NCBI RefSeq assembly: GCF_016921195.1
Contig: NZ_JAFGYF010000012.1
Coordinates: 1 to 64,000 of the forward strand
Source: Cellulosimicrobium cellulans
GTDB taxonomy: Bacteria > Actinomycetota > Actinomycetes > Actinomycetales > Cellulomonadaceae
DNA length: 64,000 nt
Direction of reading: 5' to 3'
This document shows, piece after piece, positions 29,893-55,400 of this stretch. The translations under genes were made by a program, and so were the position numbers. Under the pieces are notes generated by a model, which saw only the letters and a list, made by a program, of their open reading frames with translations, searched no databases and was not told the origin of the DNA. Within the stretch, counting starts at the first letter, position 1; each line of letters starts with the position of its first letter.

Positions 29893-30747
29893 TCAGCGGA
29901 CGGCGTCGCGCACGCGCTGCTCGGCGCGGCCCAGGCCGTCGATCTCGAGCGCGACGACGTCGCCCGCACGCAGGTAGGGAAAGCGCCCGGACAGGGCGAC
30001 GCCCTGCGGTGTCCCGGTGTTGATGAGGTCGCCGGGCTCGAGGACCATGTACTGCGACAGGTGGTGCACGAGGTACGCGACGTCGAAGATCATGTCGGCC
30101 GTCGTCGAGTCCTGGCGGGGCTCGCCGTTGACCCAGGACCGGAGCCCGAGGTTCTGGACGTCCACCTCGTCGGCGGGGACGAGCCACGGGCCGAGCGGGT
30201 TGAACGTCTCGCAGCTCTTGCCCTTGGACCACTGACCGCCGGAGACCTTCATCTGGTAGTCGCGCTCGGAGACGTCGTGCGACAGGACGTAGCCCGCGAC
30301 GTGGTCGAGCGCCTCCTGGGGCGACGACAGGTAGCGCGCCCGCCGGCCGATCACGACGCCGAGCTCGACCTCCCAGTCGACCGTCGTCGCGCCGGGCGGC
30401 ACGAGGACGTCGTCGTGCGGGCCGACGACCGTGTTCGAGTGCTTCCAGAAGACGATCGGGACCTCCGGCGGTGCCGAGCCGGACTCGGCGGCGTGCTCCG
30501 CGTAGTTCATCCCGATGCAGACGACGGCCGTGGGCCGGGCGACGGGCGCGCCGACGCGCAGATCGTCCGCGCCGTCGAGCACGGGCAGCGCGCCCGCGGC
30601 GAGCGCCGCGCGGACCCGGCCGACGCCGTCGGCCGCGAGGAACGCGCCGTCGATGTCGCGGGTGAGCGGGTCGAGGGAGTACACGACCCCGTCCTCGCGG
30701 ACGGCGGGACGCTCCTGGCCGAGGGGGCCGAGTCGGACGAGCTGCAC
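29893..30747 (-). CDS. Fumarylacetoacetate hydrolase family protein
   Basis: A 284-residue protein, GTG start after AGGAGACC. The FAH catalytic core is intact: CIGMNYAEHAAESG, FWKHSNTVVGPHD, DWEVELGVVIGRRAR (metal-binding E..E), YVLSHDVSERDYQ, INTGTPQGVAL. The family cleaves C-C bonds in 2,4-diketo acids or decarboxylates and hydrates them. In L-fucose and L-rhamnose oxidation it splits 2,4-diketo-3-deoxy acids into pyruvate and a hydroxyacid. It follows the hydroxyacid dehydrogenase gene by 84 nt on the same strand, downstream of the operator at 31845. Confidence 0.88.
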   Translation of the reverse strand: MQLVRLGPLGQERPAVREDGVVYSLDPLTRDIDGAFLAADGVGRVRAALAAGALPVLDGADDLRVGAPVARPTAVVCIGMNYAEHAAESGSAPPEVPIVFWKHSNTVVGPHDDVLVPPGATTVDWEVELGVVIGRRARYLSSPQEALDHVAGYVLSHDVSERDYQMKVSGGQWSKGKSCETFNPLGPWLVPADEVDVQNLGLRSWVNGEPRQDSTTADMIFDVAYLVHHLSQYMVLEPGDLINTGTPQGVALSGRFPYLRAGDVVALEIDGLGRAEQRVRDAVR

Positions 30748-30831
30748 GGGTGGGTCTCCTAGGTCTGGGGCGGGCGGGGCCGACCGCGGCGTGCTGCGGA
30801 GCGCCGCGGTGCGAGAGCAGTGTGCGCGTTC

Positions 30832-31836
30832 TCAGGCGAGGGCGCGCGCGTGGTCCGGGTTGACGATCGACGGCACGGGCCGGCCCGCGAGGAAGTCGAC
30901 GGCGTTGCGCGCGGTGTGCACGGGGAGGTCCTGCATGGCCTCGGGCGAGAACCACGCGGCGTGCGGGGTGAGCAGCACGTTGTCCAGGGTGCGCAGGCGC
31001 GAGTCGGCGGGCAGCGGCTCGGTCGCGTAGACGTCGAGCGCGGCCGAGCCCACGTGGCCGGACGCGAGCGCGTCGGCGAGCGCGTCCTCGTCGATGAGCG
31101 GCCCCCGGCACGTGTTGACGACCCGCACCCCCGGCTTCGCGGTGGCGAGCGTGCGGGCGTCGAGCAGGTGGCGCGTCGAGTCGGTGAGCGGCGCGTGCAG
31201 CGTGATGACGTCGGCGCGCGCGACGGCCTCGTCGATCCCCACGGCCTCGTGCCCGTCGGACGCCACGGCCTGCGGATCGACGAACGGGTCGTGCACGAGC
31301 ACGCGGTAGCCGAGCGCGCGGGCGGAGCGCGCGACCTCGGAGCCGATCCGCCCGTACCCGATCACGGCGACGACCGTGCTGGACAGGCGCGCGGCGTGCT
31401 GCGCCGTCGGCGCCCACGTGCCGGCGCGCAGCGCGCGGTCGTAGGCGACGAGGCCGCGGTCGAGCGTGAGGATCATCGCGACCGTGTGGCTCGCGACCTC
31501 CTCGATGCAGTAGGTCGGGGTGTTCGCGACGGCGACGCCGCGCTCGGTGGCGGCCGCGACGTCGACCATGTCGTAGCCGATGCCCATGCGCGAGACCATG
31601 CGCACCCCGCCCGGCCCGGCGACGGCGTCGAGCACGCGGGCCGTGATCGGGGCCCACTGCACGACGAGCGCGGAGGGCACGGACCCGCTCGCGGCGGCCT
31701 CCTCGACGGCGGCGATCACCTCGTCCTCGGTGCGCGCGGCGGCGCGCACGGCCCGCAGCCCGGCGGCGGTCAGGGTGTCCTCGCACGCGGTCCCGGGCAG
31801 GTCGCAGTCGGTGATGACGACGGTGTCGGCTGTCAT
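30832..31836 (-). CDS. D-2-hydroxyacid dehydrogenase (CtBP/phosphoglycerate dehydrogenase-like)
   Basis: A 334-residue NAD-dependent oxidoreductase. VVAVIGYGRIGSEVARSARALG is the dinucleotide fold. Catalytic Arg (NTCRGPLID), Glu (EPLPAD) and His (LTPHAAWFSPEAM) are present. The family reduces 2-keto acids to D-hydroxyacids or oxidises sugar-acid analogues. The ATG (31836) has no ribosome site. A TATAGC box inside the operator palindrome ends 9 nt upstream, so the message is probably almost leaderless and the operator covers the -10 box. It forms an operon with the FAH-family gene. Confidence 0.88.
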   Translation of the reverse strand: MTADTVVITDCDLPGTACEDTLTAAGLRAVRAAARTEDEVIAAVEEAAASGSVPSALVVQWAPITARVLDAVAGPGGVRMVSRMGIGYDMVDVAAATERGVAVANTPTYCIEEVASHTVAMILTLDRGLVAYDRALRAGTWAPTAQHAARLSSTVVAVIGYGRIGSEVARSARALGYRVLVHDPFVDPQAVASDGHEAVGIDEAVARADVITLHAPLTDSTRHLLDARTLATAKPGVRVVNTCRGPLIDEDALADALASGHVGSAALDVYATEPLPADSRLRTLDNVLLTPHAAWFSPEAMQDLPVHTARNAVDFLAGRPVPSIVNPDHARALA

Positions 31837-31844
31837 GCGATGGA

Positions 31845-31861
31845 TGCTATAGCAAATAGCA
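31845..31861. promoter_or_regulatory. GntR operator 1, TGCTATAGCAAATAGCA
   Basis: The perfect 10-bp palindrome TGCTATAGCA (31845-31854) is followed by a half site AATAGCA. The same 17 bases occur at 47319-47335 in front of the transporter operon. It overlaps the likely -10 box of the minus-strand hydroxyacid dehydrogenase operon. Confidence 0.8.
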
Positions 31862-31889
31862 CCCTCGACCAACCCTCGGGCCGCCCGGA

Positions 31890-31899
31890 TGCTATAGCG
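31890..31899. promoter_or_regulatory. GntR operator 2, TGCTATAGCG
   Basis: One mismatch from the palindrome. TATAGC (31893-31898) ends 8 nt before the SDR start at 31907, the spacing of a -10 box for a leaderless transcript. Sites 1 and 2 are centred 45 bp apart and serve divergent genes. Confidence 0.75.
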
Positions 31900-31906
31900 T
31901 GGCCTC

Positions 31907-32719: not shown

Positions 32720-32760
32720 CGCCCAGCTCCCCCGCCCACCCCCTGCCCGAGGAGGCACCC

Positions 32761-33093
32761 ATGAGCACGTCCCCGTCCGCCGTCGTCACCGCCCAGGTCG
32801 ACACCTTCAACGTCCGCGACCTCGACGCGTTCTGCGCGACCTACGCGCCCGACGCCGTCGTGAGCGGCGTGACCCCCGAGCCGATCGTCGGCCGCGACGC
32901 CCTGCGCGCGTTCTACGCGAGCCGGTTCGAGGACACCGCGCTGCACTGCGTCATCGACGCGTCCGTGACGTTCGGCGACCGCTGGCTCGTCGCGCGCGAG
33001 CTCGTCACGACGTCGAACGGCACCGGCGAGACCATCGCGACGTTCGAGGTCCGCGACGGCCTCATCACCAGCGCGAGCATGGTCAAGGGCTGA
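32761..33093 (+). CDS. SnoaL-like/NTF2-fold protein
   Basis: A 110-residue single-domain protein of the nuclear transport factor 2 fold (VVTAQVDTFNVRDLDAFCATYAPDAVVSG at the N-terminus, IATFEVRDGLITSASMVKG at the end). Members are binding proteins, isomerases or hydrolases and cannot be assigned by sequence alone. GAGGAGG precedes the ATG. It is 41 nt downstream of the SDR gene, so both belong to the unit controlled by operator 2. Confidence 0.8.
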   Translation: MSTSPSAVVTAQVDTFNVRDLDAFCATYAPDAVVSGVTPEPIVGRDALRAFYASRFEDTALHCVIDASVTFGDRWLVARELVTTSNGTGETIATFEVRDGLITSASMVKG

Positions 33094-34556: not shown

Positions 34557-35396
34557 TCAGGTGAGGCCGTACCGCGCGTCGAGGTCGGGGTCGTGGGGCG
34601 GGTCGCCGAACGACGCGGTCCAGGCGCCGTCGGCGGCGATCGACTGGCCGGAGACGTAGCCCGCCTCGTCGGACAGGAGGAACGCGACGAGTGCGGCAAT
34701 CTCCGCGGACTCGGCGATGCGGCCGAGCGGCGGACCCTCGGCGAGCGCGCGCTCCTCGGCGGCCGGGTCGGCGGCGCGGGCGATCTGGGCGTCGAGGTGC
34801 GGGGTGCGTACCCCGCCCGGCGCGACGGTGTTGGCGCGGATGCCGTACCGCCCGTACGTCACGGCGACGGAGCGCGCGAGCGCGTCGATGCCGCCCTTGG
34901 TCAGCTCGTAGGCGGCGTGGTCGGCGAACGCCGCGCGGCCGTGGATCGAGCCGATGTTGACGATCGACCCGCCGCTCACCTGGTCGGTGAACGCCTCGAC
35001 GGCGGCAGCGCAGCCCCACAGGTAGCCGAGGCCGTTGATCTCGACGACGTCGCGCGCGTCCTGCTCGACCTGCGCCGCCCGCTCCGGGTCGGCGAGCGCG
35101 TGCAGCGGCGTGCGGACGGTGATGCCCGCGTTGTTCACCCATCCGGCGAGCGGCGCGAGGTCGCGCGCGGTCCGCGCGGCCTCGCGGTGGGCCTCGCGGT
35201 CGCGCGAGTCCCCCAGCACGACGGCGGCGCACACCCCCTCCTCGACCGTCCCCGAGCCCGGGGTGCGTTCCAGCCCGACGACAGTCCACCCGTCGGCGGT
35301 GAGGCGCGCGGCCACGGCGCGGCCGATGCCCTTGCCGCTGCCGGTCACGACGGCGCTTCGGTGCCGGTTCACAGGTCCGGCTGCGGGTCCTGTCAC
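34557..35396 (-). CDS. Short-chain dehydrogenase (third in the operon-linked set)
   Basis: A 279-residue SDR, last gene of a four-gene operon. VVTGSGKGIGRAVAARL is the cofactor loop, NNAGI the structural motif, and S (NIGSIHG), Y163 and K167 (YELTK) the catalytic residues. GTG start overlaps the stop of the enolase-superfamily gene (GTGA). In oxidative fucose or rhamnose-type pathways an SDR oxidises the 2-keto-3-deoxy acid at C4. One of the two SDRs in this operon likely does this, though which one cannot be told. Confidence 0.87.
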   Translation of the reverse strand: MTGPAAGPVNRHRSAVVTGSGKGIGRAVAARLTADGWTVVGLERTPGSGTVEEGVCAAVVLGDSRDREAHREAARTARDLAPLAGWVNNAGITVRTPLHALADPERAAQVEQDARDVVEINGLGYLWGCAAAVEAFTDQVSGGSIVNIGSIHGRAAFADHAAYELTKGGIDALARSVAVTYGRYGIRANTVAPGGVRTPHLDAQIARAADPAAEERALAEGPPLGRIAESAEIAALVAFLLSDEAGYVSGQSIAADGAWTASFGDPPHDPDLDARYGLT

Positions 35397-36706
35397 GAGG
35401 GCTCCTCCAGGTCGAAGCGGTCGGGGTCGAGCGTGAAGCCCAGGCCGGGGGCGTCGGGCGGGGTCGCGTGGCCGCCGTCGAACACGGGACCGCCGCGCAC
35501 GAGCAACGGCGCGGGGTCGTAGGGGTTGCCCGCGGGCGAGCGGTCGAACGTCTCGACGCCGATGCCCGCCGCTCCGCCCAGGTGCACGCTCACCTCGGGG
35601 TACACATGACTGGACACGACCTTCCCCCGCGCGGCCCACGCGCGCACGAGCGGGTCGGCGGCGGTGATGCCGCCGATCGCCACGACGTCGACGCGCGGCA
35701 CGTCGAGCGCGCCCCGCGCTTCGAGCCGGGCGAAGACCTCGGGGTCGGTGACCTCGTCACCGACGGAAAGCGGGAGCCCGGACGCGTCGCGCACGCGCGC
35801 GGCGCCGACGGCGTCCTCGGGGAGCAGCGGGTCCTCGAGCCACGCGAGCGCGGGCGCGCTCTCCCCCGCCGCACCCGTGACGCCCCACGCGTCGAGGTCC
35901 GCGAGCGCCTCGTCCGCGTCGCGCCAGCCGAAGCCCACGTCGACGACGACGCCGCTGCGCCCCGCGACGGTCGGCCGGCCCGTGACCTCGGGCAGCTCGG
36001 CGCGCAGGATCGCGAGCAGGTCGCGCATGAGGGCGCGGTCGGGCGACCGCGAGATCTTCAGCAGCGGCCACCCGGTGCGCGCGTGCGCGAGCACCTCGTC
36101 CGCGACGTCGCGCGCGGTCCGGCCCGGCGTCGGGTATGCCGCGACGAGGATCGCGGGGCGTGGCACAGCGGCGGCCGTCCCGGATGAGACGTCGCCGGGA
36201 CTCCCTGCGACGGCACGTGACGGAGCGCCCCTGTCGCCGCCGACACCGGGCTCCGCGGACCCCGCGAGGTCCGGGCCGTCGTCGAGCAGGGACCACACGG
36301 GACGACCGGCGAGGCGGCCCGCGAGGTCCCACAGCGCGACGTCGACCAGGCCGATCGCGCGCCGCACGAGGCCCACGCGGCCGACGATCGCGGACCCGCG
36401 CAGGGCCGCGTCCCAGACGGCGCCGACGCTCTGGCGTGCTGCAACGCCGTCGGACGCGACGACCTCCCGGCCCACCACGTGCGGGGCGACGAGCCGGTCC
36501 ACGAGCTCGGCCATGGGTGCCTCGCGCGTGAGCGCGTACGACTCCCCGGCGACGGTGCGGCCGTCGTCCGTCTCGGCGACGACGCGCACACCGACGTACT
36601 CGCGGCGCTCGACCGTCATCGCGCCGAGGCGCAGCGGCTGCGGCAGCGGGACGACCGTCGTCGCGGTGCGGACGGCGACGACGCGCGCGGCGGTCCCCAC
36701 GCTCAC
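35393..36706 (-). CDS. Enolase-superfamily acid-sugar dehydratase (mandelate racemase/fuconate dehydratase type)
   Basis: A 437-residue enzyme. The N-terminal capping domain is followed by a TIM barrel. Metal ligands appear as D256 (VVVDVGFGW), E291 (AWLEDPL) and E318 (SVGDEV). The base His of the MR subgroup is probably H367 (SSHVYPEVSVHL). At the second-strand position the usual KxK is K217-I-S (LLKISRS), so only one lysine remains and the His would be the main base. The expected reaction is dehydration of a sugar acid to its 2-keto-3-deoxy form. A 30-residue Gly/Ser/Ala-rich insertion lies near residues 145-180. GTG starts overlap stops at both ends. Confidence 0.85.
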   Translation of the reverse strand: MSVGTAARVVAVRTATTVVPLPQPLRLGAMTVERREYVGVRVVAETDDGRTVAGESYALTREAPMAELVDRLVAPHVVGREVVASDGVAARQSVGAVWDAALRGSAIVGRVGLVRRAIGLVDVALWDLAGRLAGRPVWSLLDDGPDLAGSAEPGVGGDRGAPSRAVAGSPGDVSSGTAAAVPRPAILVAAYPTPGRTARDVADEVLAHARTGWPLLKISRSPDRALMRDLLAILRAELPEVTGRPTVAGRSGVVVDVGFGWRDADEALADLDAWGVTGAAGESAPALAWLEDPLLPEDAVGAARVRDASGLPLSVGDEVTDPEVFARLEARGALDVPRVDVVAIGGITAADPLVRAWAARGKVVSSHVYPEVSVHLGGAAGIGVETFDRSPAGNPYDPAPLLVRGGPVFDGGHATPPDAPGLGFTLDPDRFDLEEPS

Positions 36707-37500
36707 TCCGGCTTCTTGGCGAGCGGTACGCCGTAGTCGACGAGGAAACCGCCGTCGACGTAGACGGTCTGCCCGACCATGTACGCGGCCTGGTCGGACA
36801 CGAGCCAGCTCACCGCGTTGCCGATCTCCTCCGGCTGGGCGAGCCGGCGGGCGGGGATGCGCGCGAGGATCGTCTCCTCCGAGAGCGTGCCCTGGGCGAC
36901 GCCCTGGCGGAAGACGCCCGTGTCGATGTACCCGGGGGCGACGGCGTTGACCCGCACTCCCCGCGCGGCCCACTCGGCGCCCGCGGTCGCGGTGAGCCCG
37001 ATGACGGCGGCCTTGGTCGTCGAGTAGGGCGCCCGGCCCGCGGAGCCGCGCGCCGAGACGGACGAGATGTTGACGACGGCGCCCCGGCCCGCCGCGAGCA
37101 TGTGGCGACCCGCGGCCTGGAGGCACGCGAAGACGCCGTGCAGGTTGACGTCCACGACGGCCGACCACTCGTCCCACGTGAGGTCCTCGAGCGCGCGGTG
37201 GCGCTGGATGCCCGCGTTGTTGACGAGCGCGTCGATCCCGCCGAACGCCGCGGCGAGGTCGTCGAACGCGGCGCGCACGGCGGCGTGGTCCGTGACGTCG
37301 AGCGGGGCCCAGACGAGCCCGGGCGCGTGGGGGACGGCGCCGAGGTCGAGCGCGGGCAGGTCGTGCTGCACGACGTCCGCGCACACGACCCGGAACCCGT
37401 CGGTCGCGAGGCGCTCGGCGACGGCGCGGCCGATGCCGGCCGCTCCCCCGGTGACGACGGCGAGCGGGACGCGCGGGGCGTCGGGGGCGGGGGTGGTCAC
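36703..37500 (-). CDS. Short-chain dehydrogenase (second in the operon)
   Basis: A 265-residue classical SDR. VVTGGAAGIGRAVAERL, NNAGIQ, S in NISSVSARG and Y159/K163 (YSTTK) are all present, and the C-terminus YVDGGFLVDYG is standard. Starts at GTG overlapping the stop of the ceramidase-like gene and ends overlapping the dehydratase start. It likely oxidises a sugar or 2-keto-3-deoxy-acid intermediate with NAD. Confidence 0.88.
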   Translation of the reverse strand: MTTPAPDAPRVPLAVVTGGAAGIGRAVAERLATDGFRVVCADVVQHDLPALDLGAVPHAPGLVWAPLDVTDHAAVRAAFDDLAAAFGGIDALVNNAGIQRHRALEDLTWDEWSAVVDVNLHGVFACLQAAGRHMLAAGRGAVVNISSVSARGSAGRAPYSTTKAAVIGLTATAGAEWAARGVRVNAVAPGYIDTGVFRQGVAQGTLSEETILARIPARRLAQPEEIGNAVSWLVSDQAAYMVGQTVYVDGGFLVDYGVPLAKKPE

Positions 37501-39202: not shown

Positions 39203-39212
39203 TGCTATAGCA
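39203..39212. promoter_or_regulatory. GntR operator 3, TGCTATAGCA
   Basis: A perfect palindrome 30 nt upstream of the ceramidase-like start, in the gap shared with the divergent GntR gene (start 39324). It overlaps the probable -10 box of the minus-strand operon and may also serve autoregulation. Confidence 0.8.
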
Positions 39213-40796: not shown

Positions 40797-40806
40797 TGCT
40801 ATAGCA
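40797..40806. promoter_or_regulatory. GntR operator 4, TGCTATAGCA
   Basis: A perfect palindrome 34 nt upstream of the acetyltransferase start at 40841. TATAGC within it is correctly placed to be the -10 box. Confidence 0.75.
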
Positions 40807-41905: not shown

Positions 41906-42012
41906 CCAAGACCACGAACGCGGCACTACCACTCGGCGGGCCGCCCACCTGGGTCTCTGCTCACCTCAGGGGACCACCCGCGCTGCGGACCCGAACCCGC
42001 GCGCCGAGACCC

Positions 42013-42173: not shown

Positions 42174-42183
42174 TGCTATGGCA
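42174..42183. promoter_or_regulatory. GntR operator 5, TGCTATGGCA
   Basis: One base from the palindrome. It is the exact reverse complement of operator 6, 61 nt downstream. Confidence 0.6.
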
Positions 42184-42244: not shown

Positions 42245-42254
42245 TGCCATAGCA
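42245..42254. promoter_or_regulatory. GntR operator 6, TGCCATAGCA
   Basis: Exact reverse complement of operator 5. The pair lies upstream of the two beta-helix genes, about 190 nt before the first start, and could support looping between two dimers. Confidence 0.6.
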
Positions 42255-47318: not shown

Positions 47319-47335
47319 TGCTATAGCAAATAGCA
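47319..47335. promoter_or_regulatory. GntR operator 7, TGCTATAGCAAATAGCA
   Basis: The same 17 bases as operator 1, including the AATAGCA half site. It lies 70 nt before the GTG of the oxidoreductase gene that starts the transporter operon. The remaining parts of the 382-nt gap show only the palindrome above. Confidence 0.8.
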
Positions 47336-47404: not shown

Positions 47405-48778
47405 GTGACCCCGAACCCCCCGCCTGTCACCGTCGCCCTCGTCGGCGCCGGCAACCGTGGTCAGACGTACGCGCGCTGGATCGCCGAGCACCCCGAGCGC
47501 GCACGTCTCGTCGCCGTCGCCGACCCCCGCCCCCACCAGCGCGGGCTCGTCGTCGACCAGGCCGTCGCGGCGCAGGCCGGCCTCTCCGCAGCCCAGGCCG
47601 TCGCGTCGGGCACCGCGCTCAATGTCGAACCGGGTGCCGAGCTCCCGCAGGTCGCGGAGTTCGCCGGCTGGCGCGACCTCGTCGCCGCGGGCGACGCCGA
47701 CCGGGCCGCGGGGGGCACCGGTCGACTCGCGGACATGGTGATCGTCGCGACGCAGGACCGCGAGCACCGCGACCCCGTCGTCGCGCTCGCGCCGCAGGGG
47801 TACGCGATCCTCGTCGAGAAGCCGCTCGCGCCGAGCCCGGAGGAGTGCCGGGACGTCGTGGACGCGGTCGAGGAGTCGGGCGTGCTCTTCGGCGTGTGCC
47901 ACGTGATGCGCTACATGCCGTACACGGACCTCGTGAAGTCGGTCGTCGACTCGGGCGTCCTGGGCGAGATCGTCAACGTCCAGCACCTCGAGCCCGTCGG
48001 CTGGTGGCACGACGCCCACTCCTACGTGCGCGGCCCGTGGCGCTCGGAGAAGACGTCGAGCCCGATGCTCCTCGCGAAGTCGAGCCACGACCTCGACTGG
48101 ATCCGCTACGTCACGGGCAAGCGGATCGCGACGGTCGCGAGCTTCGGCTCCCTCAAGCACTTCCGGCCCGAGGAGCGGCCCGCGGGCGCGGCGGACCGCT
48201 GCCTGGACTGCCCGCTCGAGCCCACGTGCCCGTACTCGGCGCCGCGCCTGTACCTGTCGACGCTCCGCGAGAAGGGCCCGATCTGGCCGGTCTCCGTCAT
48301 CACGGACGCGACCGACGAGGCGGGCGTCGTCGAGGCCTTGCGTACCACCGACTACGGCCGCTGCGTCTACGACTCGGACAACGACGTCGTCGACCACCAG
48401 GTGGTCGCGATGGAGCTCGAGGGCGGCGGCGCGGCGACGTTCACCATGACGGCGTTCTCCGAGCAGGACCACCGCAAGACCCAGATCTTCGGGACCCACG
48501 GGTGCCTCGACGGTGACGGCGAGAAGGTCCGCGTGACCGACTTCCGCGACGGCAGCGTGACCGTGCACGACGGCGGCCACCACGGCGCCACGAACGCCGC
48601 CGACGACCACGGCGGCGGCGACTCGGGCGTCATGGACGCGTTCGTGCGCGCCGTCGCCACGGGCGACCCGAGCCACGTCCGGTCGGGCGCCGTCGAGTCC
48701 CTCCAGAGCCACCTCGCCGTGTTCGCGGCCGAGGAGTCGCGCCACCGGCGCACCGTCGTCGACGTCCCGGCCCGCTGA
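47405..48778 (+). CDS. Gfo/Idh/MocA-family sugar oxidoreductase
   Basis: A 457-residue NAD-dependent oxidoreductase, GTG start. GAGNRG (about residue 14) binds the cofactor, VEKPLAPS carries the family's catalytic Lys, and HVMRYMPY and SSHDLDWIRYVTG complete the active site (His and Asp). An internal insert holds a CLDCPLEPTCPY cluster of three Cys, seen in a subset of actinobacterial members. It probably oxidises the imported sugar at C1 or C3 to a keto or lactone form. First gene of a seven-gene unit with the ABC importer, behind operator 7. Confidence 0.88.
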   Translation: MTPNPPPVTVALVGAGNRGQTYARWIAEHPERARLVAVADPRPHQRGLVVDQAVAAQAGLSAAQAVASGTALNVEPGAELPQVAEFAGWRDLVAAGDADRAAGGTGRLADMVIVATQDREHRDPVVALAPQGYAILVEKPLAPSPEECRDVVDAVEESGVLFGVCHVMRYMPYTDLVKSVVDSGVLGEIVNVQHLEPVGWWHDAHSYVRGPWRSEKTSSPMLLAKSSHDLDWIRYVTGKRIATVASFGSLKHFRPEERPAGAADRCLDCPLEPTCPYSAPRLYLSTLREKGPIWPVSVITDATDEAGVVEALRTTDYGRCVYDSDNDVVDHQVVAMELEGGGAATFTMTAFSEQDHRKTQIFGTHGCLDGDGEKVRVTDFRDGSVTVHDGGHHGATNAADDHGGGDSGVMDAFVRAVATGDPSHVRSGAVESLQSHLAVFAAEESRHRRTVVDVPAR

Positions 48779-48881: not shown

Positions 48882-50156
48882 ATGACCCTGCGCACGACGA
48901 AGCGCCTCTGGACCGCCGCCCTCGCGGTCGGCACGCTCGGCGCGCTGAGCGCCTGCGCCGGCGGTGCCGGCGCCGGCAGCTCCACCCCCACCCCCGAGGA
49001 CGGCGCCGCGTCCGGCTCCGTGACGATGTGGACGTACCCCGTCATCGCCGACGAGGCCGCCCACAAGGCCTTCTGGGACGAGCAGATCGCCGCCTTCCAG
49101 GAGGAGAACCCGGACGTCGAGGTCAAGGTCGAGATCTACCCGTGGGCCGGTCGTGACGAGACCCTCGCGACGGCCATCGCGGGCAACAAGGGCCCGGACG
49201 TCGTCTACCTCATCCCGGACCAGATCCCCAAGTACGGCAAGTCGCTGGCTGCGGTGGACAACTACGTCACCGACCAGGTGGGCGACCTGCGCGAGAACGC
49301 GTCGAAGGCCGTCACGGTCGACGGCGCGATGCTCGGCTCGCCGCTGATCATGAACAGCAAGCCGCTCGTGTGCAACGCCGCGGCGTTCGAGGCCGTCGGC
49401 GAGGCCGGCAACTACCCCGAGACGTGGGACGACCTCATGGCGCTCGCGCCGACGTTCCAGGCCGCGGGCTACGACGTCACCAACTACTGGGGCTCGGTCG
49501 ACGCGACGCTCAACGAGTCCTTCTACCCGCTGCTGTGGCAGGCGGGCGGGTCCGTCTTCTCCGAGGACGGCTCGTCGGTGGCGTTCGACTCGCCCGAGGG
49601 CGTCCAGGCCCTCCAGTTCGCGGTCGACCTCGCCGAGGGCGGGTACATCGAGAAGGACCTGCTGACGACGATCCCCGCGTTCGAGCAGACCAACACCGCC
49701 AAGGGCAAGATCGCGTGCACCTGGCAGCAGGGCCCCGCCGACGTCGCCGGCTTCTGGGGCGAGGAGAACGTCGTCGTCCTCCCGCCCCTCAAGGAGGCGG
49801 AGGCGGTCGCGTTCGGCACGGTCGGCTCGCTGTCCGTGCTCAAGACGGCGGACAACCTCGACGCCGCGGGCAAGTGGGCCGCGTTCGCGACCTCGCCCGA
49901 GGTGAGCACGGAGTACGCGAAGGCGGCGGGCTGGTTCTCGCCGTACGAGACCGAGTCGGGCCTCTACGCCGACGACCCGGTGCTCTCCGCGCTCGAGGAC
50001 ACGCTCCAGTACACGACCGCGGGCGAGGTCAACGAGAAGTCCCGTGAGGTCATGGGCGTGCTCGCCCCGGAGATCCAGGCCGCGCTCATCGGCGAGAAGA
50101 CGCCGGAGCAGGCCCTGAAGGACGCGGCCGCAGCGGCGAACCCGCTGCTCGGCTGA
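48882..50156 (+). CDS. ABC importer sugar-binding lipoprotein, cluster 2
   Basis: A 424-residue solute-binding lipoprotein. The lipobox LSAC (Cys about residue 26) precedes a Gly/Ser/Thr linker. VTMWTYPVIADEAAHKAFWDEQIAAFQEENPDVEVKVEIYPW is the N-terminal lobe, and GKIACTWQQGPADVAGFWG lines the binding cleft. It is unlike the first binding protein (11520) apart from the fold, so it takes a different ligand, presumably fragments released by the beta-helix proteins. AAGGAGA precedes the ATG. Confidence 0.92.
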   Translation: MTLRTTKRLWTAALAVGTLGALSACAGGAGAGSSTPTPEDGAASGSVTMWTYPVIADEAAHKAFWDEQIAAFQEENPDVEVKVEIYPWAGRDETLATAIAGNKGPDVVYLIPDQIPKYGKSLAAVDNYVTDQVGDLRENASKAVTVDGAMLGSPLIMNSKPLVCNAAAFEAVGEAGNYPETWDDLMALAPTFQAAGYDVTNYWGSVDATLNESFYPLLWQAGGSVFSEDGSSVAFDSPEGVQALQFAVDLAEGGYIEKDLLTTIPAFEQTNTAKGKIACTWQQGPADVAGFWGEENVVVLPPLKEAEAVAFGTVGSLSVLKTADNLDAAGKWAAFATSPEVSTEYAKAAGWFSPYETESGLYADDPVLSALEDTLQYTTAGEVNEKSREVMGVLAPEIQAALIGEKTPEQALKDAAAAANPLLG

Positions 50157-50163
50157 CCGACGT

Positions 50164-50232: not shown

Positions 50233-51186
50233 ATGACCGCGACCGCCCCCACCTCGGACGGGATCACCGCCGACGGGGCCGACCGGCGCCCGGCGTCGAA
50301 GCCCCCGCGCGGCGGCACCCGCCGCGTCCTGCAGCGCCGCGAGGCGAGGATCGGCCTGCTGTTCGCCCTCCCCGCGTTCCTGCTGTTCCTGCTGTTCCGG
50401 TTCGGTCCCGCCATCGCGGGCGTCGCGCTGAGCTTCTTCGACTACACCATCGGCGTCGGCGCCGAGTGGACGGGCGTCGAGAACTTCCGGCGCATGGTCG
50501 ACGACCCGATCTTCTGGTCGGCGCTGCGCGTCACGGTCGTGCTGAGCCTGCTCATCGTCCCGGTGTCGCTCGCGATCTCGACGTTCATGGCGCTCATGGT
50601 GCGCCGCTCGTTCCGCGGCTCCGGCTTCTACCGGTCGGTGTTCTTCCTGCCCGTCGTCACGAGCCTCGTGCTCGCCGCGACCGTGTTCACGTGGGTGTTC
50701 TCCACGAACGGCCCGTGGTCCAAGCTCATGGGCGCGCTCGGGTTCTCGACGGAGTCCTGGCTCGGCGACACGCTGCTCGTGCTGCCCGCGCTCGCCATGG
50801 TCGCGATCTGGTCGCGCTTCGGGTACGGGATGCTCATCCTCCTCGCCCGCATGCAGGACCTGCCTCGCGAGCTCGAGGAGGCCGCCGCGATCGACGGCGC
50901 CGGACCGTGGAAGCGGTTCTGGCACATCATCGCGCCGCAGCTCAAGCCCACGCTCTTCTTCCTCGCCGTCATCGAGACGACGGCGTCGTTCCAGATCTTC
51001 GACCTCGTCTACGTGATGACGGCGGGCGGACCGGCCCGGGCGAGCTACAACCTCGTCTTCTACATCTACGACCAGGGCTTCAAGTACTTCGACCTCGGCT
51101 ACGCGAGCGCGCTCGGCGTCGCGCTGTTCGTCGTCACGCTCGTCGTCGCCCTCATCCAGCGCTTCGCCATCGGGAGGGACAAGTGA
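50233..51186 (+). CDS. ABC sugar permease (MalF-type), cluster 2
   Basis: A 317-residue CUT1 permease with six helices, the first at about residues 35-60. The EAA loop is ELEEAAAIDGAGPWKRFWHIIAPQLKPT. GAGAGGAGA precedes the ATG. Its stop overlaps the next start (GTGA). As in the first importer, the ATPase is not encoded nearby. Confidence 0.93.
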   Translation: MTATAPTSDGITADGADRRPASKPPRGGTRRVLQRREARIGLLFALPAFLLFLLFRFGPAIAGVALSFFDYTIGVGAEWTGVENFRRMVDDPIFWSALRVTVVLSLLIVPVSLAISTFMALMVRRSFRGSGFYRSVFFLPVVTSLVLAATVFTWVFSTNGPWSKLMGALGFSTESWLGDTLLVLPALAMVAIWSRFGYGMLILLARMQDLPRELEEAAAIDGAGPWKRFWHIIAPQLKPTLFFLAVIETTASFQIFDLVYVMTAGGPARASYNLVFYIYDQGFKYFDLGYASALGVALFVVTLVVALIQRFAIGRDK

Positions 51187-52103
51187 CCGCCGCCGACCCC
51201 ACCACCACCGAGCGCGTGCTCGAGGGGGCCGCGCTGCCGGTGCGCCCCACCGCGACCCGGCGCCGGCGCGGCCGCAAGGGCGCGAGCGACCTGTCGCTGC
51301 GCGGCAAGGTGCTGCGCTACGTCGTGCTCTCGCTCGCCGCCGTCGTGACGATCTTCCCGTTCTACGCGATGGTCGTGCTGTCGCTGAAGCCGGCCGCCGC
51401 GATCGACTTCCCCGCGTCGCTCCTGCCGACGAACCTCACGACCGAGGCCTACGGCCGCGTGCTCGGCGCGGGCAACATCGGCACCTGGCTCGTCAACACG
51501 CTCGTGTACTCGGTCGTGTCCGTCGTCGCCGTGCTGCTGCTCGCGTCGATGGCCGGCTACGCGTTCGCCAAGAAGAAGTTCCCCGGGCGCGAGGCCATGT
51601 TCTGGTCGTTCCTCGCGATGGTCATGGTCCCGTACCACGTGACCCTCATCCCGACGTTCATCCTCATCGCGCAGGCGGGCGGACTCGACACGTACTGGGG
51701 CCTGATCCTGCCGACGCTCGCGAACGCGCAGGCCGTGTTCCTCATGCGGCAGTTCATCCTCGACCTGCCCGACGAGCTGTTCGAGGCCGCGAAGCTCGAC
51801 GGCGCCTCGGAGTGGCGCATCTTCCTGCGCATCGTGCTGCCCCTGTGCAAGCCGATCCTCGCGACGCTCGGCACGTTCGTCTTCCTGTGGCACTGGAACG
51901 ACTTCCTGTGGCCGCTCATCATCGGCCAGGGCACCGACCACTGGACGCTGACCGTCGGCATCGCCTCGCTCCAGCAGCAGGACGTGCCGCTCAACATGGT
52001 GCTCGCGGGCGCCACCATCTCGTTCGTTCCGATCTTCGCCTCGTACCTCGTGGCCCAGCGCTTCTTCGTCGAGGGCGTCACCTCGTCCGGCATCAAGGGA
52101 TGA
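51183..52103 (+). CDS. ABC sugar permease (MalG-type), cluster 2
   Basis: A 306-residue permease from a GTG overlapping the previous stop. The first helix (about 47-70) reads VLSLAAVVTIFPFYAMVVLSLK, and the EAA loop is ELFEAAKLDGASEWRIFLRIVLPLCKPI. The C-terminus GVTSSGIKG is typical of MalG proteins. Its stop overlaps the start of the epimerase gene (ATGA), so transport and catabolic genes are translationally coupled. Confidence 0.93.
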   Translation: MTAADPTTTERVLEGAALPVRPTATRRRRGRKGASDLSLRGKVLRYVVLSLAAVVTIFPFYAMVVLSLKPAAAIDFPASLLPTNLTTEAYGRVLGAGNIGTWLVNTLVYSVVSVVAVLLLASMAGYAFAKKKFPGREAMFWSFLAMVMVPYHVTLIPTFILIAQAGGLDTYWGLILPTLANAQAVFLMRQFILDLPDELFEAAKLDGASEWRIFLRIVLPLCKPILATLGTFVFLWHWNDFLWPLIIGQGTDHWTLTVGIASLQQQDVPLNMVLAGATISFVPIFASYLVAQRFFVEGVTSSGIKG

Positions 52104-53170
52104 CTCACCACATGACCACGCAGACCAGCACCACCGCCCTGAAAGCCCCGACGTCCGTCGCGGAGCTCGAGGAGCTGCTCACGACGCCGTCGCCCGCCCT
52201 CGTGGAGGACCTGGCCGCCCGCTCGGGCGACCTCGTCATCCTCGGAGCGGGCGGCAAGATGGGTCCGAGCCTCACCGTCCTCGCCCGCCGGGCGCTCGAC
52301 GCGGCCGGGCGCACAGGCGACGCCGTGCACGCCGTCTCGCGGTGGTCCGACGCCGCGCAGGCCGACCGCCTGCGCGACGCCGGCGTGAACGTCGTCGCGG
52401 CCGACCTGCTCGCGCCCGACGCGGACCTCGCCGCCCTGCCCGACGGCGCCGACGTCGTCTACATGGTGGGCGCCAAGTTCGGCACGTCGTCCGCGCCGTC
52501 GCTCGCGTGGGCCGCGAACGCGGCGCTCGTGCACGACGTCGCGCGCCGCTACGCCGACTCGACCATCGCGGCGTTCTCCACCGGGAACGTCTACCCGCTC
52601 GTGCCCGTCGAGTCGGGCGGGTGCTCCGAGGAGCACCCCGTGGGGCCGGTCGGCGAGTACGCGATGAGCTGCCTCGGGCGCGAGCGCGTGCTCCAGCACG
52701 CCGCGCTCTCGCGCGGCACGAAGGTCGTGACGATCCGCCTCAACTACGCCGTCGACCTGCGCTACGGCGTGCTGTTCGACGTCGCGTCACCGATCCTCGC
52801 GGGCGAGCCCGTGGACCTCACGACGGGGCACGTCAACGTCGTGTGGCAGGGGTACGCGAACGAGGTCGCGCTGCGCTCGCTCGCGCTCGCGTCGTCGCCC
52901 GCGACGGCGATCAACCTCACCGGACCGGAGACGGCGTCGGTACGGCGCCTCGCGGAGCTCCTCGGCCGCGGCCTCGACCGCGAGGTGTCGTTCACGGGCG
53001 AGCCCGCCCCGACGGCGCTCCTCAACGACGCGACGCGCTGCCACGAGCTGTTCGGCTACCCGCAGGTGCCGCTGCGCACGCTCGTGGACTGGCAGGCGCG
53101 GTGGCTCGCGGCCGGGCTGCCGACGAGCGGCAAGCCGACGAAGTTCGCCGTGCGCGACGGGGCGTTCTGA
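52100..53170 (+). CDS. NAD-dependent epimerase/dehydratase family protein
   Basis: A 356-residue extended-SDR-like protein. LVILGAGGKMGPSLTVLARRAL near residue 45 binds the dinucleotide, but the usual YxxxK is not evident: the expected region reads VGEYAMSCLGRERV, with Tyr followed by Cys-Leu-Gly rather than a clear Lys. Catalysis by the standard SDR mechanism is therefore doubtful. It could be a sugar 3-dehydrogenase, epimerase or binding relic. Coupled to genes on both sides by overlaps of 4 and 1 nt. Confidence 0.8.
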   Translation: MTHHMTTQTSTTALKAPTSVAELEELLTTPSPALVEDLAARSGDLVILGAGGKMGPSLTVLARRALDAAGRTGDAVHAVSRWSDAAQADRLRDAGVNVVAADLLAPDADLAALPDGADVVYMVGAKFGTSSAPSLAWAANAALVHDVARRYADSTIAAFSTGNVYPLVPVESGGCSEEHPVGPVGEYAMSCLGRERVLQHAALSRGTKVVTIRLNYAVDLRYGVLFDVASPILAGEPVDLTTGHVNVVWQGYANEVALRSLALASSPATAINLTGPETASVRRLAELLGRGLDREVSFTGEPAPTALLNDATRCHELFGYPQVPLRTLVDWQARWLAAGLPTSGKPTKFAVRDGAF

Positions 53171-54339
53171 TGACGAGCGCCGTCACGGTCCCGCGCCTCG
53201 CGGACGACGTCGCGAGGCTGCTGCGGACGGGGACCGTCATCCCCGCGCAGCCGCTCGCGCTCGACGCCGACCGCCGCCTCGACGAGCGCCGCCAGCGCGC
53301 GCTCACGCGGTACTACCACGCCGCGGGCGCGGGCGGCGTGGCGGTCGGCGTCCACACGACCCAGTTCGAGATCCGCGAGCACGGGCTCCTGCGACCCGTG
53401 CTCGAGCTCGCCGCAGAGGTGTCGCGCGCGACGATCGCGGGCGACGCGCCCGCGGGCTCGCTGCACACCGGGCCCCGCCCGCTCGTCCAGGTCGCGGGCG
53501 CCGCCGGCGACGTGCGGCAGGCCGTCGCCGAGGCGGAGCTCGCGGCAGGACTCGGCTACGACGCGGTGCTGCTCGCGCCCCGCGTGCCCGGACTCACGGG
53601 CTCGCGCGAGGAGGTCGAGCGCGTGCTGCTCGACCGGGCGCGCGCGGTCGGCGAGGTGCTGCCCGTCATCGGGTTCTACCTCCAGGAGGCGATCGGCGGG
53701 CCGCGACTGTCCGTCGGCTTCTGGCGCGAGTACGCGTCGATCGAGGCGGTCGTCGCGATCAAGGCCGCGCCGTTCCACCGCTACCGGACGCTCGACGTCC
53801 TGCGCGGCGTCGCCGCGTCCGGGCGCGGCGACGAGATCGCGCTGTACACGGGCAACGACGACGCGATCGTCGCCGACCTCACTCAGCGCCTCGACGTCCC
53901 GGTGACCGACGCCGAGGGGCGCGCCTCGACCTTCACGGCGCGGTTCGTGGGCGGCCTGCTCGGGCAGTGGGCGGTCTGGACCCGGGGCGCGGTCGAGACG
54001 CTGGCCCTCGCGCACGCGGCCCAGGGCATCGGGCCGGACGGGGGCGCCACCGTGCCCGACGCCGCCGCCCTCGCGACCCTCACCGCGCGCGCGGCCGGCC
54101 TCACCGACGCGAACGCGGCCGTCTTCGACGCGGCGGGCGACTTCGCGGGCGTCATCGCAGGCGTGCACGAGGTGCTGCGCCGCCAGGGCCTGCTCGAGGG
54201 CATCTGGTGCCTCGACCCGGACGAGACCCTCTCCCCCGGCCAGGCCGACGAGCTGACGCGCGTGACGGCGTCGTACCCGTGGCTCGCGGCCGCGGACGAC
54301 GCGCTCGTCGCGGAGCACCTCGAGGACTGGCTGCGATGA
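53170..54339 (+). CDS. DapA-like aldolase (dihydrodipicolinate synthase/KDG aldolase family)
   Basis: A 389-residue TIM-barrel protein. The Schiff-base Lys is likely in EAVVAIKAAPFHRYR (about residue 198), with the assisting Tyr in IGFYLQEAIGG (about 172). The usual glycine pair for the pyruvate carboxylate is less clear. It is about 90 residues longer than DapA, with a helical C-terminal extension. This subgroup is found beside sugar dehydrogenases and may cleave a 2-keto-3-deoxy acid to pyruvate and an aldehyde. The ATG overlaps the previous stop by one base (TGATG). Confidence 0.82.
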   Translation: MTSAVTVPRLADDVARLLRTGTVIPAQPLALDADRRLDERRQRALTRYYHAAGAGGVAVGVHTTQFEIREHGLLRPVLELAAEVSRATIAGDAPAGSLHTGPRPLVQVAGAAGDVRQAVAEAELAAGLGYDAVLLAPRVPGLTGSREEVERVLLDRARAVGEVLPVIGFYLQEAIGGPRLSVGFWREYASIEAVVAIKAAPFHRYRTLDVLRGVAASGRGDEIALYTGNDDAIVADLTQRLDVPVTDAEGRASTFTARFVGGLLGQWAVWTRGAVETLALAHAAQGIGPDGGATVPDAAALATLTARAAGLTDANAAVFDAAGDFAGVIAGVHEVLRRQGLLEGIWCLDPDETLSPGQADELTRVTASYPWLAAADDALVAEHLEDWLR

Positions 54340-55400
54340 CCGGCGCGCCCGGCACGGAGACCGTCGCGGGGCCTGGTCCGGGAGCCGGGGCTGCCCGCGC
54401 GGTCGTCGCGGTCGCGCCGTGGTTGCGCACCGAGCTGTTCGCCCCGGACGTCTGGGAGCGCCTGGCCGGCGCGGGACCGTTCGACGTCGTCGACGACCCG
54501 CGGGCGCTCGGCGCCGCGCTCGACCGGCTGAGCCCCGCGGTGCGCGAGCGCGTCGACGCGCTCGTCATCTCCTGGGGCACGCCGCCCCTGGACGACGACC
54601 TCCTGGACCGGCTCCCCCGGCTGCGGCTCGTCGCGCACACGGGCGCCTCCGTCAAACCGTTCGTCACGCCCGCGCTGTGGGAGCGCGGGGTCCGCGTGAC
54701 ACAGGCGGGCCAGGCGATGGCGCGCCCCGTCGCGGAGGTCTCGGTGACGTTCGCGCTCGCGCTGCTGCACCAGGTCCCCGCGTTCCACAACGCCCTGCAC
54801 GACGGCGTCCCGTGGGCCGACGCCGAGGCCGCACCCCCGCGGTACGAGATCGCGGGCACGCGCGTCGGCGTCGTCGGGGCGTCGCGCACCGGCCGTGCGG
54901 CGATCGCGATGCTGCGTGCGCTCGGCGCGGAGGTCGTGGTCGCCGACCCGACCCTCTCCCCCGCCGACGCCGCCGCGCTCGGCGCGACGCTCGTCGCGCT
55001 CGACGAGCTGCTCGCGACGAGCCGCGTGACGATGCTGCACGCGCCCGTGCTGCCCGAGACCCACCACCTGCTCGGCGCGCGCGAGCTCGCGCTCCTGCCC
55101 GACCACGCGGGCCTCGTCAACACCGCGCGGTCGTGGCTCACCGACGAGGACGCGCTCGTCCGCGAGCTCGCGACGGGGCGGATCAGCGCCGCGCTCGACG
55201 TCTACGACGCCGAGCCGCTGCCCGAGGACCACCCGCTGCGCCGCCTGCGGAACGTGCTCCTCACGCCGCACCACGCCGCCGCGACCGTGCAGGGGCGGCT
55301 CGCGCAGGGCGCGATCGTCGTCGACGAGCTCGCGCGGTTCCGCGCGGGCGAGCCGCTGGTCCACGAGGTCCGGGAGGCGGACCTCGACCGCATGGGCTGA
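54336..55400 (+). CDS. 2-Hydroxyacid dehydrogenase, cluster 2
   Basis: A 354-residue D-isomer hydroxyacid dehydrogenase. TRVGVVGASRTGRAAIAMLRALG is the NAD loop, with Ser-Arg replacing the usual Tyr-Gly. The catalytic region has NTARSW (Arg), EPLPEDHP (Glu) and LTPHHAA (His). It is last in the operon, overlapping the aldolase stop by 4 nt, and ends 7 nt from the convergent EamA gene. A role in reducing keto acids or oxidising the hydroxyacid product of the pathway is plausible. Confidence 0.87.
   Translation: MTGAPGTETVAGPGPGAGAARAVVAVAPWLRTELFAPDVWERLAGAGPFDVVDDPRALGAALDRLSPAVRERVDALVISWGTPPLDDDLLDRLPRLRLVAHTGASVKPFVTPALWERGVRVTQAGQAMARPVAEVSVTFALALLHQVPAFHNALHDGVPWADAEAAPPRYEIAGTRVGVVGASRTGRAAIAMLRALGAEVVVADPTLSPADAAALGATLVALDELLATSRVTMLHAPVLPETHHLLGARELALLPDHAGLVNTARSWLTDEDALVRELATGRISAALDVYDAEPLPEDHPLRRLRNVLLTPHHAAATVQGRLAQGAIVVDELARFRAGEPLVHEVREADLDRMG

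What the first reader, a model, noticed from the sequence alone, without database searches (positions are those of the whole stretch)
29893..55400. A candidate undescribed sugar-acid catabolic regulon tied together by TGCTATAGCA
Seven copies of one palindrome (four exact TGCTATAGCA, three with 1-2 changes) stand in front of five transcription units and nowhere else that I found in the window. The units supply two secreted beta-helix proteins, an importer, sugar oxidation (SDR, Gfo/Idh), an acid-sugar dehydratase, a further SDR, a FAH-type hydrolase, a DapA-like aldolase and two hydroxyacid dehydrogenases. This has the steps of an oxidative, phosphate-free sugar pathway plus its own depolymerases. 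The combination is not one I can name, and the substrate is not obvious.
Basis: partly seen in the sequence, partly recalled or inferred. Interest (0 to 1): 0.8.

Follow-up and report, generated by a model that had tools for sequence, protein, structure and literature searches.

The report
GntR-controlled sugar-acid scavenging regulon
A soil actinobacterium (Cellulosimicrobium) uses one DNA switch sequence, found almost nowhere else in its genome, to control a set of genes that probably cut up an acidic polysaccharide, import the pieces and burn them; the switch also stands before a distant serine-breakdown gene, which hints at what the food is.

Summary
The palindrome is real and specific. 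The 4.58-Mb genome holds four exact TGCTATAGCA copies, all in this cluster, and eight places within one mismatch, seven of them here. In 200 genomes of the family, the 15 with the cluster's GntR-FCD regulator (39324-40013) hold 4-6 exact copies each; the other 185 hold none (171) or one (14). Places are kept in Isoptericola and Oerskovia; in Microbacterium only half of the units keep sites. At the two units with a recognisable promoter the site sits where a repressor would. The eighth place lies 32-33 bp before sdaA (L-serine ammonia-lyase): present in 13 of 14 regulator-bearing and 0 of 8 regulator-less genomes with an ortholog. So: seven local units plus sdaA, not five. Gene content fits uptake and oxidative, non-phosphorylating breakdown of a sugar or uronic acid. 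The secreted beta-helix proteins resemble tailspike depolymerases; one enzyme has a neutral-ceramidase-like fold; the DapA-like enzyme belongs to a widespread subfamily I could not name. The substrate is not established. I found no description of operator or regulon in the papers searched. A new variant of a known kind (FadR-type GntR catabolic regulon).

The parts
29004..29876 (+). SMP-30/gluconolactonase-family gene (SGL); neighbour by synteny, no operator of its own
   Evidence: Pfam PF08450 E 6e-65; kept beside FAH in relatives
29893..30747 (-). FAH-family hydrolase, best PDB match L-2,4-diketo-3-deoxyrhamnonate hydrolase
30832..31836 (-). D-2-hydroxyacid dehydrogenase HAD1 (unit HAD1-FAH)
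31845..31854 (.). operator, exact TGCTATAGCA, for HAD1-FAH; extra half-site beside it
31890..31899 (.). operator TGCTATAGCG, 7 bases before the SDR1 start codon
31907..32719 (+). SDR1 dehydrogenase (unit SDR1-SnoaL)
32761..33093 (+). SnoaL-like protein
34557..35348 (-). SDR2 dehydrogenase (start codon uncertain)
35393..36706 (-). enolase-superfamily (MR/MLE) acid-sugar dehydratase-like
   Evidence: Pfam MR_MLE_C/N
36703..37500 (-). SDR3 dehydrogenase
37497..39173 (-). neutral-ceramidase-like Zn amidase candidate (NCDase-like), first gene of the NCDase-SDR3-MR/MLE-SDR2 unit
   Evidence: Pfam PF04734 21.9 bits, below cut-off; fold match to neutral ceramidases E 7e-13 on a low-confidence model
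39203..39212 (.). operator, exact, between NCDase-like unit and gntR (divergent)
39324..40013 (+). GntR-family regulator with FCD domain (FadR subfamily)
   Evidence: Pfam GntR E 1e-18, FCD E 1e-21
40797..40806 (.). operator, exact, before the GNAT gene
40841..41905 (+). GNAT acetyltransferase, regulon member
   Evidence: Pfam Acetyltransf_9; site kept although the protein is only 51-55% identical in G016, G084, G085, G113
42174..42183 (.). operator TGCTATGGCA, upstream of Bhel1
42245..42254 (.). operator TGCCATAGCA inside the 17-base spacer of the Bhel promoter (TTGACG-17-TAGTCT)
42444..44717 (+). Bhel1, Tat-type secreted beta-helix protein (start uncertain; the longest frame, TTG at 42444, includes a Tat-like signal)
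44803..47022 (+). Bhel2, Tat-type secreted beta-helix protein, tailspike-depolymerase-like
47319..47328 (.). operator, exact, 15-24 bases after the -10 element of TTAACA-17-TAACAT; extra half-site follows
47405..48778 (+). Gfo/Idh/MocA oxidoreductase
48882..50156 (+). ABC importer, solute-binding protein
50233..51186 (+). ABC importer permease 1
51183..52103 (+). ABC importer permease 2
52112..53170 (+). NAD-dependent epimerase-like protein (Epim), found near the DapA-like gene in many phyla
53170..54339 (+). DapA-like enzyme of a separate subfamily (Lys198, Tyr170, HTTQ loop)
54336..55400 (+). D-2-hydroxyacid dehydrogenase HAD2

Best explanation
The GntR-FCD protein at 39324-40013 is most likely a repressor that binds WTGCTATAGCAW in front of seven local transcription units and, 33 bp before its start codon, the unlinked gene sdaA. 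When a carboxylic intermediate of the pathway binds the FCD domain, the repressor lets go. The regulon then makes two Tat-exported, tailspike-like beta-helix proteins that cut an acidic, probably bacterial, polysaccharide; an ABC importer for the fragments; and cytoplasmic enzymes (Gfo/Idh, three SDRs, epimerase-like, enolase-superfamily dehydratase, lactonase neighbour, DapA-like enzyme, FAH-type hydrolase, two hydroxyacid dehydrogenases, a ceramidase-fold amidase/esterase candidate) that oxidise, dehydrate and cleave the sugars or sugar acids without phosphorylation to pyruvate plus a hydroxy acid; SdaA turns serine that the pathway releases or forms into pyruvate. Shown by sequence: the sites, their linkage to the regulator across genomes, the promoter position at two units, the gene content. 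Inferred: repression, effector, export of active depolymerases, order of steps, substrate.
For: Site distribution in own genome. Regulator and sites occur together: 15 of 15 regulator-bearing family genomes have 4-6 exact copies; 0 of 185 others have more than one. Within the genus, DapA-like and Bhel2 genes are in the same 8 of 17 genomes as the regulator. Same sites and genes in the ten mapped relatives of three genera (one g23 unit found separately). In six Microbacterium genomes all 16 exact copies lie at homologous genes. Streptomyces, Embleya and Microtetraspora loci carry Bhel, importer, Epim, DapA and HAD2 but, within those loci, no such GntR and no site, so the motif follows the regulator, not the enzymes. 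sdaA site: 13 of 14 versus 0 of 8; SdaA meets TIGR00720. Operator fills the 17-base promoter spacer of the Bhel unit at the same offset in 4 of 4 genomes looked at, from three genera. Recognition-helix residue 47 is His in 9 of 9 aligned regulators where FadR has the G-contacting Arg45, and the operator has C where the usual consensus has that G (PMC4494728). FAH best match 8gsr, L-2,4-diketo-3-deoxyrhamnonate hydrolase. Bhel2 fold: tailspike depolymerases and alginate epimerase/lyases.
Against: No binding or expression data. One regulator-bearing genome (G016) has no site before sdaA, six Microbacterium genomes have sdaA relatives but none of their <=1-mismatch sites is there, and G084 has no sdaA ortholog at the threshold. 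For the units other than Bhel and Gfo/Idh my scan saw no consistent promoter. The TKGT/ACMA consensus of the subfamily is not met. Bhel proteins match no Pfam or PHROGs family; in NCBIfam Bhel2 has only a below-cut-off match over its signal region (TIGR02811, 20.4 against 48.45 bits). The Bhel2 model is of middling confidence (mean pLDDT 70.9; TM-scores about 0.3) and the strongly conserved stretch around 377-466 is poorly modelled. FAH, MR/MLE and the SDRs score below the cut-offs of the NCBIfam models listed (for SDRs only the best 25 of 210-229 models were shown).
Confidence: 0.72

Rival explanations
1. Deoxyhexose version: the regulon degrades L-fucose, L-rhamnose or a like 6-deoxy sugar by the known non-phosphorylating route 3 (dehydrogenase, lactonase, dehydratase, SDR, FAH hydrolase to pyruvate and L-lactate), with HAD1/HAD2 handling the hydroxy acid.
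For: FAH best PDB match is L-2,4-diketo-3-deoxyrhamnonate hydrolase (8gsr, E 3e-61) and NF053535 is its top NCBIfam model; dehydrogenase, lactonase, dehydratase, SDR and hydrolase are the route-3 steps described in PMC11199699 (passages).
Against: FAH scores 266.6 against a cut-off of 500; MR/MLE resembles several dehydratases weakly and none above cut-off; does not explain the DapA-like/Epim pair, the ceramidase-like protein, GNAT or sdaA.
Confidence: 0.25
2. Uronate version: Epim, MR/MLE and the DapA-like enzyme work like uronate dehydrogenase, aldarate dehydratase/cycloisomerase and KdgD of the oxidative uronate pathway, feeding on an alginate- or pectin-like acidic polysaccharide.
Against: No NCBIfam match of Epim or the DapA-like protein at E 1e-3; Epim has Tyr183 in 69 of 69 homologs but no Lys in the usual YxxxK place; a shared beta-helix fold shows no activity; the pathway comparison is recalled.
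Confidence: 0.25
3. The palindromes are strong promoter -10 elements (TGNTATA) of one sigma factor rather than operators.
For: TGCTATAGC looks like an extended -10 element (recalled); HAD1 and SDR1 sites lie within 20 bases of start codons.
Against: Perfect palindromes at four places, and A or T at both outer positions in 93 of 98 sites (the inner ten bases were selected by match, so only the outer ones are independent); separate TTGACR-17-TAnnnT or TTAACA-17-TAACAT promoters around or before two of the sites; linkage with the regulator gene.
Confidence: 0.03
4. Sites are conserved only because the whole locus is a recently spread block, without function.
For: Genes and sites are inherited as one block within Cellulosimicrobium (most proteins over 90% identical outside G016).
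Against: Sites persist where neighbours diverge (GNAT 51-55% identical; Microbacterium with a 52-59% identical regulator) and occur at the unlinked sdaA only in regulator-bearing genomes.
Confidence: 0.02

Closest known systems
FadR-subfamily (FCD) GntR regulators such as UxuR, ExuR, DgoR, GntR, HypR (PMC4494728)
   Same: GntR winged helix plus FCD domain; palindromic A/T-centred operators, here with the 2-base centre also reported for UxuR, GntR and HypR; divergent gene next to sugar-acid genes; extra half-sites beside some sites
   Different: Operator has CT..AG in place of GT..AC; His in place of the recognition-helix Arg; unlinked sdaA target; effector and substrate unknown
Non-phosphorylating L-fucose/L-rhamnose route 3 (PMC11199699)
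   Same: Dehydrogenase, lactonase-family, dehydratase, SDR and FAH-type diketo-acid hydrolase steps
   Different: Members below family cut-offs; adds DapA-like/Epim, Gfo/Idh, two hydroxyacid dehydrogenases, ceramidase-like enzyme, GNAT, tailspike-like secreted proteins
Oxidative uronate pathway (Udh, Gci or aldarate dehydratase, KdgD; recalled)
   Same: Epimerase-family SDR, enolase-superfamily and DapA-family enzymes together
   Different: No match to named families; catalytic motifs of Epim and of the DapA-like loop differ
Phage tailspike capsule depolymerases (K64-1 S2-4, AP22 gp54, LKA1 gp49, K2-2 TSP)
   Same: A stretch near the N-terminus and the right-handed beta-helix
   Different: Chromosomal, Tat-type signal, under catabolic control, no PHROGs match
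Neutral ceramidases (2zws, 4wgk)
   Same: Predicted fold of the 37497-39173 protein; H110, H112, H258, E450 and Y481 invariant in 7 of 7 where I recall the zinc ligands
   Different: No signal peptide seen by eye, below Pfam cut-off, sits in a sugar-acid operon

Membership tests
FadR-subfamily GntR regulator | N-terminal GntR winged helix | tested here: met
   PF00392 67 bits, cut-off 27
FadR-subfamily GntR regulator | C-terminal FCD domain | tested here: met
   PF07729 78 bits, cut-off 24.3; Asp134, His138, His184, His206 invariant in 9 of 9, metal role recalled
FadR-subfamily GntR regulator | typical (not defining; NanR and BioR also depart from it) operator TKGT..ACMA | tested here: not met
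   sites read TGCT..AGCA; consensus from PMC4494728
FadR-subfamily GntR regulator | carboxylic-acid effector | not testable with these tools
   needs a binding assay
L-2,4-diketo-3-deoxyrhamnonate hydrolase (NF053535) | score above curated cut-off | tested here: not met
   266.6 bits against 500
DHDPS/NAL (DapA) enzymes | Schiff-base Lys and active-site Tyr | tested here: met
   Lys198 and Tyr170 in 80 of 80 homologs; mapping to DapA recalled
DHDPS/NAL (DapA) enzymes | GTTGE carboxylate-binding loop (recalled) and Pfam match | tested here: not met
   HTTQ in 80 of 80 at that place; no Pfam match at E 1e-3
Neutral ceramidase | Pfam PF04734 above cut-off | tested here: not met
   21.9 bits against 32.1
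Neutral ceramidase | fold | tested here: inconclusive
   four ceramidase chains are the only matches under E 1e-3 (E 7e-13 to 1e-10, TM 0.41-0.49), but model pLDDT is 57.9
Phage tailspike depolymerase | sequence family membership (PHROGs) | tested here: not met
   no PHROGs match to E 0.1 for three proteins; PDB profile search weak, E 0.0065 at best
Phage tailspike depolymerase | tailspike-type beta-helix | tested here: inconclusive
L-serine ammonia-lyase (SdaA, unlinked target) | TIGR00720 above cut-off | tested here: met
   587 bits against 345

The most novel reading that the evidence does not exclude
The regulon is a scavenging system for an amino-acid-decorated bacterial polysaccharide: tailspike-like secreted enzymes, domesticated from or convergent with phage depolymerases, cut a capsule or exopolysaccharide whose uronic acids carry serine in amide linkage; the ceramidase-fold amidase splits uronoyl-serine inside the cell; serine goes to SdaA, and the uronic acid goes through the Epim/DapA-like pair, a widespread two-enzyme module with an uncharacterised reaction.
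Probability: 0.12. Interest if true: 0.88.

Novelty: new variant of a known kind. Interest (0 to 1): 0.62.

Why it matters
It is an unusually clean case in which one short palindrome marks a regulon in four actinobacterial genera and, in two of them, reaches a distant gene, so predictions can be tested directly. It carries several enzymes of unknown reaction that recur together in many phyla (an Epim gene lay within the same locus in 71 of 80 DapA-like loci), so finding the substrate would annotate genes in hundreds of genomes. A regulator whose Arg-to-His change is matched by a G-to-C change in its operator would be a natural specificity switch. The same enzyme set seems to have changed regulator between genera (GntR here, perhaps ROK in Microbacterium), a chance to study regulon rewiring. 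If the secreted proteins do cut bacterial capsules, they would be a chromosomal source of capsule depolymerases outside phages.

Tried and rejected
Reading the 10-mer as chance: rejected by genome-wide counts and regulator-less controls. Two-mismatch matches as sites: not counted; their conservation was not tested. HsdR-N-like gene 33452-34519 and gene 40075-40677 as members: rejected; among ten mapped relatives the first was seen in G008 only and the second in G010 only.

Naming the substrate from paper searches led nowhere. 'TGCTATAGCA' or 'GntR': 1,946 papers hold at least one; the five listed hold no copy of the 10-mer. The six-gene combination (at least four terms): 0 papers. Cellulosimicrobium + polysaccharide + gene cluster + GntR: 0 papers. 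DapA-family with L-fucose/GntR (10 of 34 listed), depolymerase in these genera (8 of 8), DapA-family with mandelate racemase (8 of 13): the listings show nothing on this locus. Searches served single points (listings). Passages were seen of PMC4494728 (also its section 10), PMC11199699 and PMC11989651; no paper was read whole. 'Not described' therefore means not found in these searches of an open-licence library.

Rows dropped before counts: in the sdaA test G014 (75% complete, has the site, regulator not assembled) was left out and G001 had no ortholog at the threshold; nine of the 16 genomes had no ortholog. In one search, 10 of the 14 other regulator-bearing family genomes were mapped (plus the G014 fragment). 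Alignments A1-A4 and A7 used chosen subsets of the relatives. Promoters were looked at in four genomes per unit. PDB sequence searches with single Bhel2, DapA-like, NCDase-like and Epim proteins gave nothing useful. Phylum-wide, the Bhel alignment found no further genome in 396 although Streptomyces, Embleya and Microtetraspora relatives exist, so that sample is sparse. The count of 32 of 98 extra half-sites has no chance control.


Full report
What was claimed and what is there. All seven are there: four exact, three with one change each. The genome (G000, 4,580,223 bases, 23 contigs) holds four exact copies, all in the cluster, and eight places with at most one mismatch, seven in the cluster and one at C18:250910. 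Seven of eight in a given 15.5-kb span has a chance of 4e-17.

The regulator. The gene at 39324-40013 encodes a GntR-family protein with an FCD domain, divergent from the NCDase-like operon, with an exact site in between. In 200 genomes of the family the regulator (E <= 1e-30) is in 15. The exact 10-mer is in 29 of the same 200: those 15 hold 4 (eight genomes of this genus), 5 (G084) or 6 (six genomes of genus g23) copies; of the 185 others, 14 hold one and 171 none. One of the 14 is G014, 75% complete, whose single copy lies in a fragment of this very cluster. Within the genus, the DapA-like gene and Bhel2 are found in the same 8 of 17 genomes as the regulator.

Conservation of places. In ten relatives with fetched regions (seven of this genus; two of g23, by contig match Oerskovia; one of g21, Isoptericola) the sites stand before the same genes; in G085 and G057 the HAD1/SDR1 unit lies apart with its sites. 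In the g21 and g23 genomes the pair of one-mismatch sites before the beta-helix genes is replaced by a single exact site. The GNAT gene keeps its site although its protein is only 51-55% identical in G016, G084, G085 and G113, which argues that it belongs.

Microbacterium: a narrower regulon. Microbacterium has most of the genes in similar order and a 52-59% identical regulator. In six Microbacterium genomes all 16 exact copies lie at homologous genes, as do 10 of 22 one-mismatch places: around gntR, before the NCDase-like/SDR3 genes and between SDR1 and HAD1. There an Opp-type importer (SBP_bac_5 and two permeases, tested in L126) stands beside gntR. But the SBP-to-HAD2 operon (12 of 12 loci), Bhel2 (7 of 7) and GNAT (6 of 6) have no site within two mismatches in the 400 bases upstream; a gene of the ROK family (Pfam, tested in L054) stands divergent to that operon in 12 loci. 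So there are two modules: one that follows this GntR in all four genera (NCDase-like unit, SDR1/SnoaL, HAD1/FAH), and one (Bhel, importer, Epim, DapA-like, HAD2, GNAT) that is under the palindrome in three genera only. Streptomyces, Embleya and Microtetraspora loci that hold the second module show, within the loci, neither this GntR nor a site, and their genomes hold no exact copy. The motif follows the regulator.

The unlinked target. The eighth place, C18:250910 (CGCTATAGCA), lies 33 bases before the start of sdaA (L040:6954), an L-serine ammonia-lyase that meets TIGR00720 (587 bits, cut-off 345). In six g23 genomes an exact TGCTATAGCA stands at the same distance. Of 14 regulator-bearing genomes with an sdaA ortholog, 13 have the site (32-33 bases before the start), G016 does not; of eight regulator-less genomes with an ortholog, none does (Fisher P 3e-5, not corrected for common descent). 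Microbacterium sdaA relatives are not at any of the listed sites. So sdaA very probably belongs to the regulon in two genera, and the pathway may release or make serine.

How the switch works. Over 98 sites, chosen by at most one mismatch to the 10-mer in 11 genomes and seven Microbacterium loci (75 distinct 34-mers), A or T stands at both outer places in 93 of 98: WTGCTATAGCAW. Before the beta-helix genes the operator fills the 17-base spacer of a TTGACR-17-TAnnnT promoter at the same offset in four of four genomes looked at, from three genera; before the Gfo/Idh operon it begins 14-15 bases past the -10 element of a TTAACA-17-TAACAT promoter in three of four. Both are positions for a repressor. 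At the other four intergenic places my scan saw no consistent promoter. Thirty-two of 98 sites have a third half-site within nine bases (no chance control); extra half-sites near the palindrome are reported for this subfamily (PMC4494728, passages). That paper gives TKGT..ACMA as the subfamily's consensus and a recognition-helix Arg (FadR Arg45) contacting G as the main base-specific contact (section 10 and passages). Here the operator has C in that place and the aligned residue is His47 in 9 of 9 regulators (alignment to FadR by eye). A matched change of protein and DNA is a simple reading; it is not tested.

What the genes do. FAH: best solved relative is L-2,4-diketo-3-deoxyrhamnonate hydrolase (8gsr, E 3e-61), but 266.6 bits against a cut-off of 500. 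MR/MLE: an enolase-superfamily protein with weak resemblance to several acid-sugar dehydratases. Three SDRs, two hydroxyacid dehydrogenases and a Gfo/Idh protein are assigned to superfamily only. SMP-30 (29004) is a neighbour without a site. These could make the steps of the route-3 non-phosphorylating fucose/rhamnose pathway (PMC11199699, passages), with more genes left over.

The DapA-like/Epim pair. The DapA-like protein has no Pfam match. In 80 loci fetched from named genomes (the 80 best of at least 591) Lys198 and Tyr170 are invariant, as in class I aldolases of this fold (recalled), but the usual carboxylate loop (GTTGE, recalled) reads HTTQ in all 80. An Epim gene lies in the same locus in 71 of 80, mostly right beside it, from Actinomycetota to Bacteroidota, Acidobacteriota, Planctomycetota and Pseudomonadota; its Tyr183 is invariant in 69 of 69 but the usual Lys four places on is not there. 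In several alphaproteobacterial loci an MR/MLE-type gene and a GNAT gene join the pair, in Nitratireductor an MR/MLE gene and tricarboxylate-type transporters. The reaction is unknown to me.

The ceramidase-like protein. The first gene of the NCDase-SDR3-MR/MLE-SDR2 unit scores below the Pfam ceramidase cut-off, but the only fold matches under E 1e-3 are four neutral-ceramidase chains (E 7e-13 to 1e-10), on a low-confidence model (pLDDT 57.9). Neutral ceramidases are zinc amidases (recalled). Together with sdaA this suggests an amide whose amine is serine. Uronic acids amidated with amino acids are known in bacterial O-polysaccharides (PMC11989651, passages: lysine predominant; serine and threonine among the abbreviations of a legend). 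This is the boldest reading, given 0.12.

Verdict. A real, well-delimited regulon with a plausible repressor and an unexpected serine link. The kind of system (FadR-type GntR control of sugar-acid use) is known; I found no description of the operator, the target set or several of the reactions in what I could search.

Noticed in passing
L040:6911-6920 (G000 C18:250910) and L156-L159, L161, L162: Operator 33 bases before sdaA, seen only in genomes that carry the cluster's regulator (and in the incomplete G014): an unlinked regulon member.
   Followed up: yes
L044-L123 (80 genome loci): DapA-like plus epimerase-like genes recur together across many phyla (71 of 80 loci), with a two-domain GNAT gene and an enolase-superfamily gene in alphaproteobacteria and an Nramp-type transporter in a Saprospiraceae locus (L114); reaction unknown.
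   Followed up: partly
window 42012-42135: Tandem array of 5.9 copies of a 21-base unit (CGACCACGGTTCTACCTCGCG), 94% matches, just upstream of the beta-helix operators.
   Followed up: partly
window 33452-34519 and 40075-40677: HsdR-N-like gene and a small repeat-protein-like gene between regulon units; each found in only one of ten mapped relatives.
   Followed up: partly
   Followed up: partly
L133 (OY725879.1): A record named Subdoligranulum variabile plasmid encodes a 53% identical Bhel relative, and two other such records parts of a DapA-like gene; unannotated, origin doubtful.
   Followed up: no
L050-L056, L060, L062, L063, L065, L066: In Microbacterium a ROK-type gene stands divergent to the importer operon, which there lacks the palindrome: control seems split between two regulators. 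A ROK gene also precedes the Gfo/Idh-importer operon on a Streptomyces atratus plasmid.
   Followed up: partly
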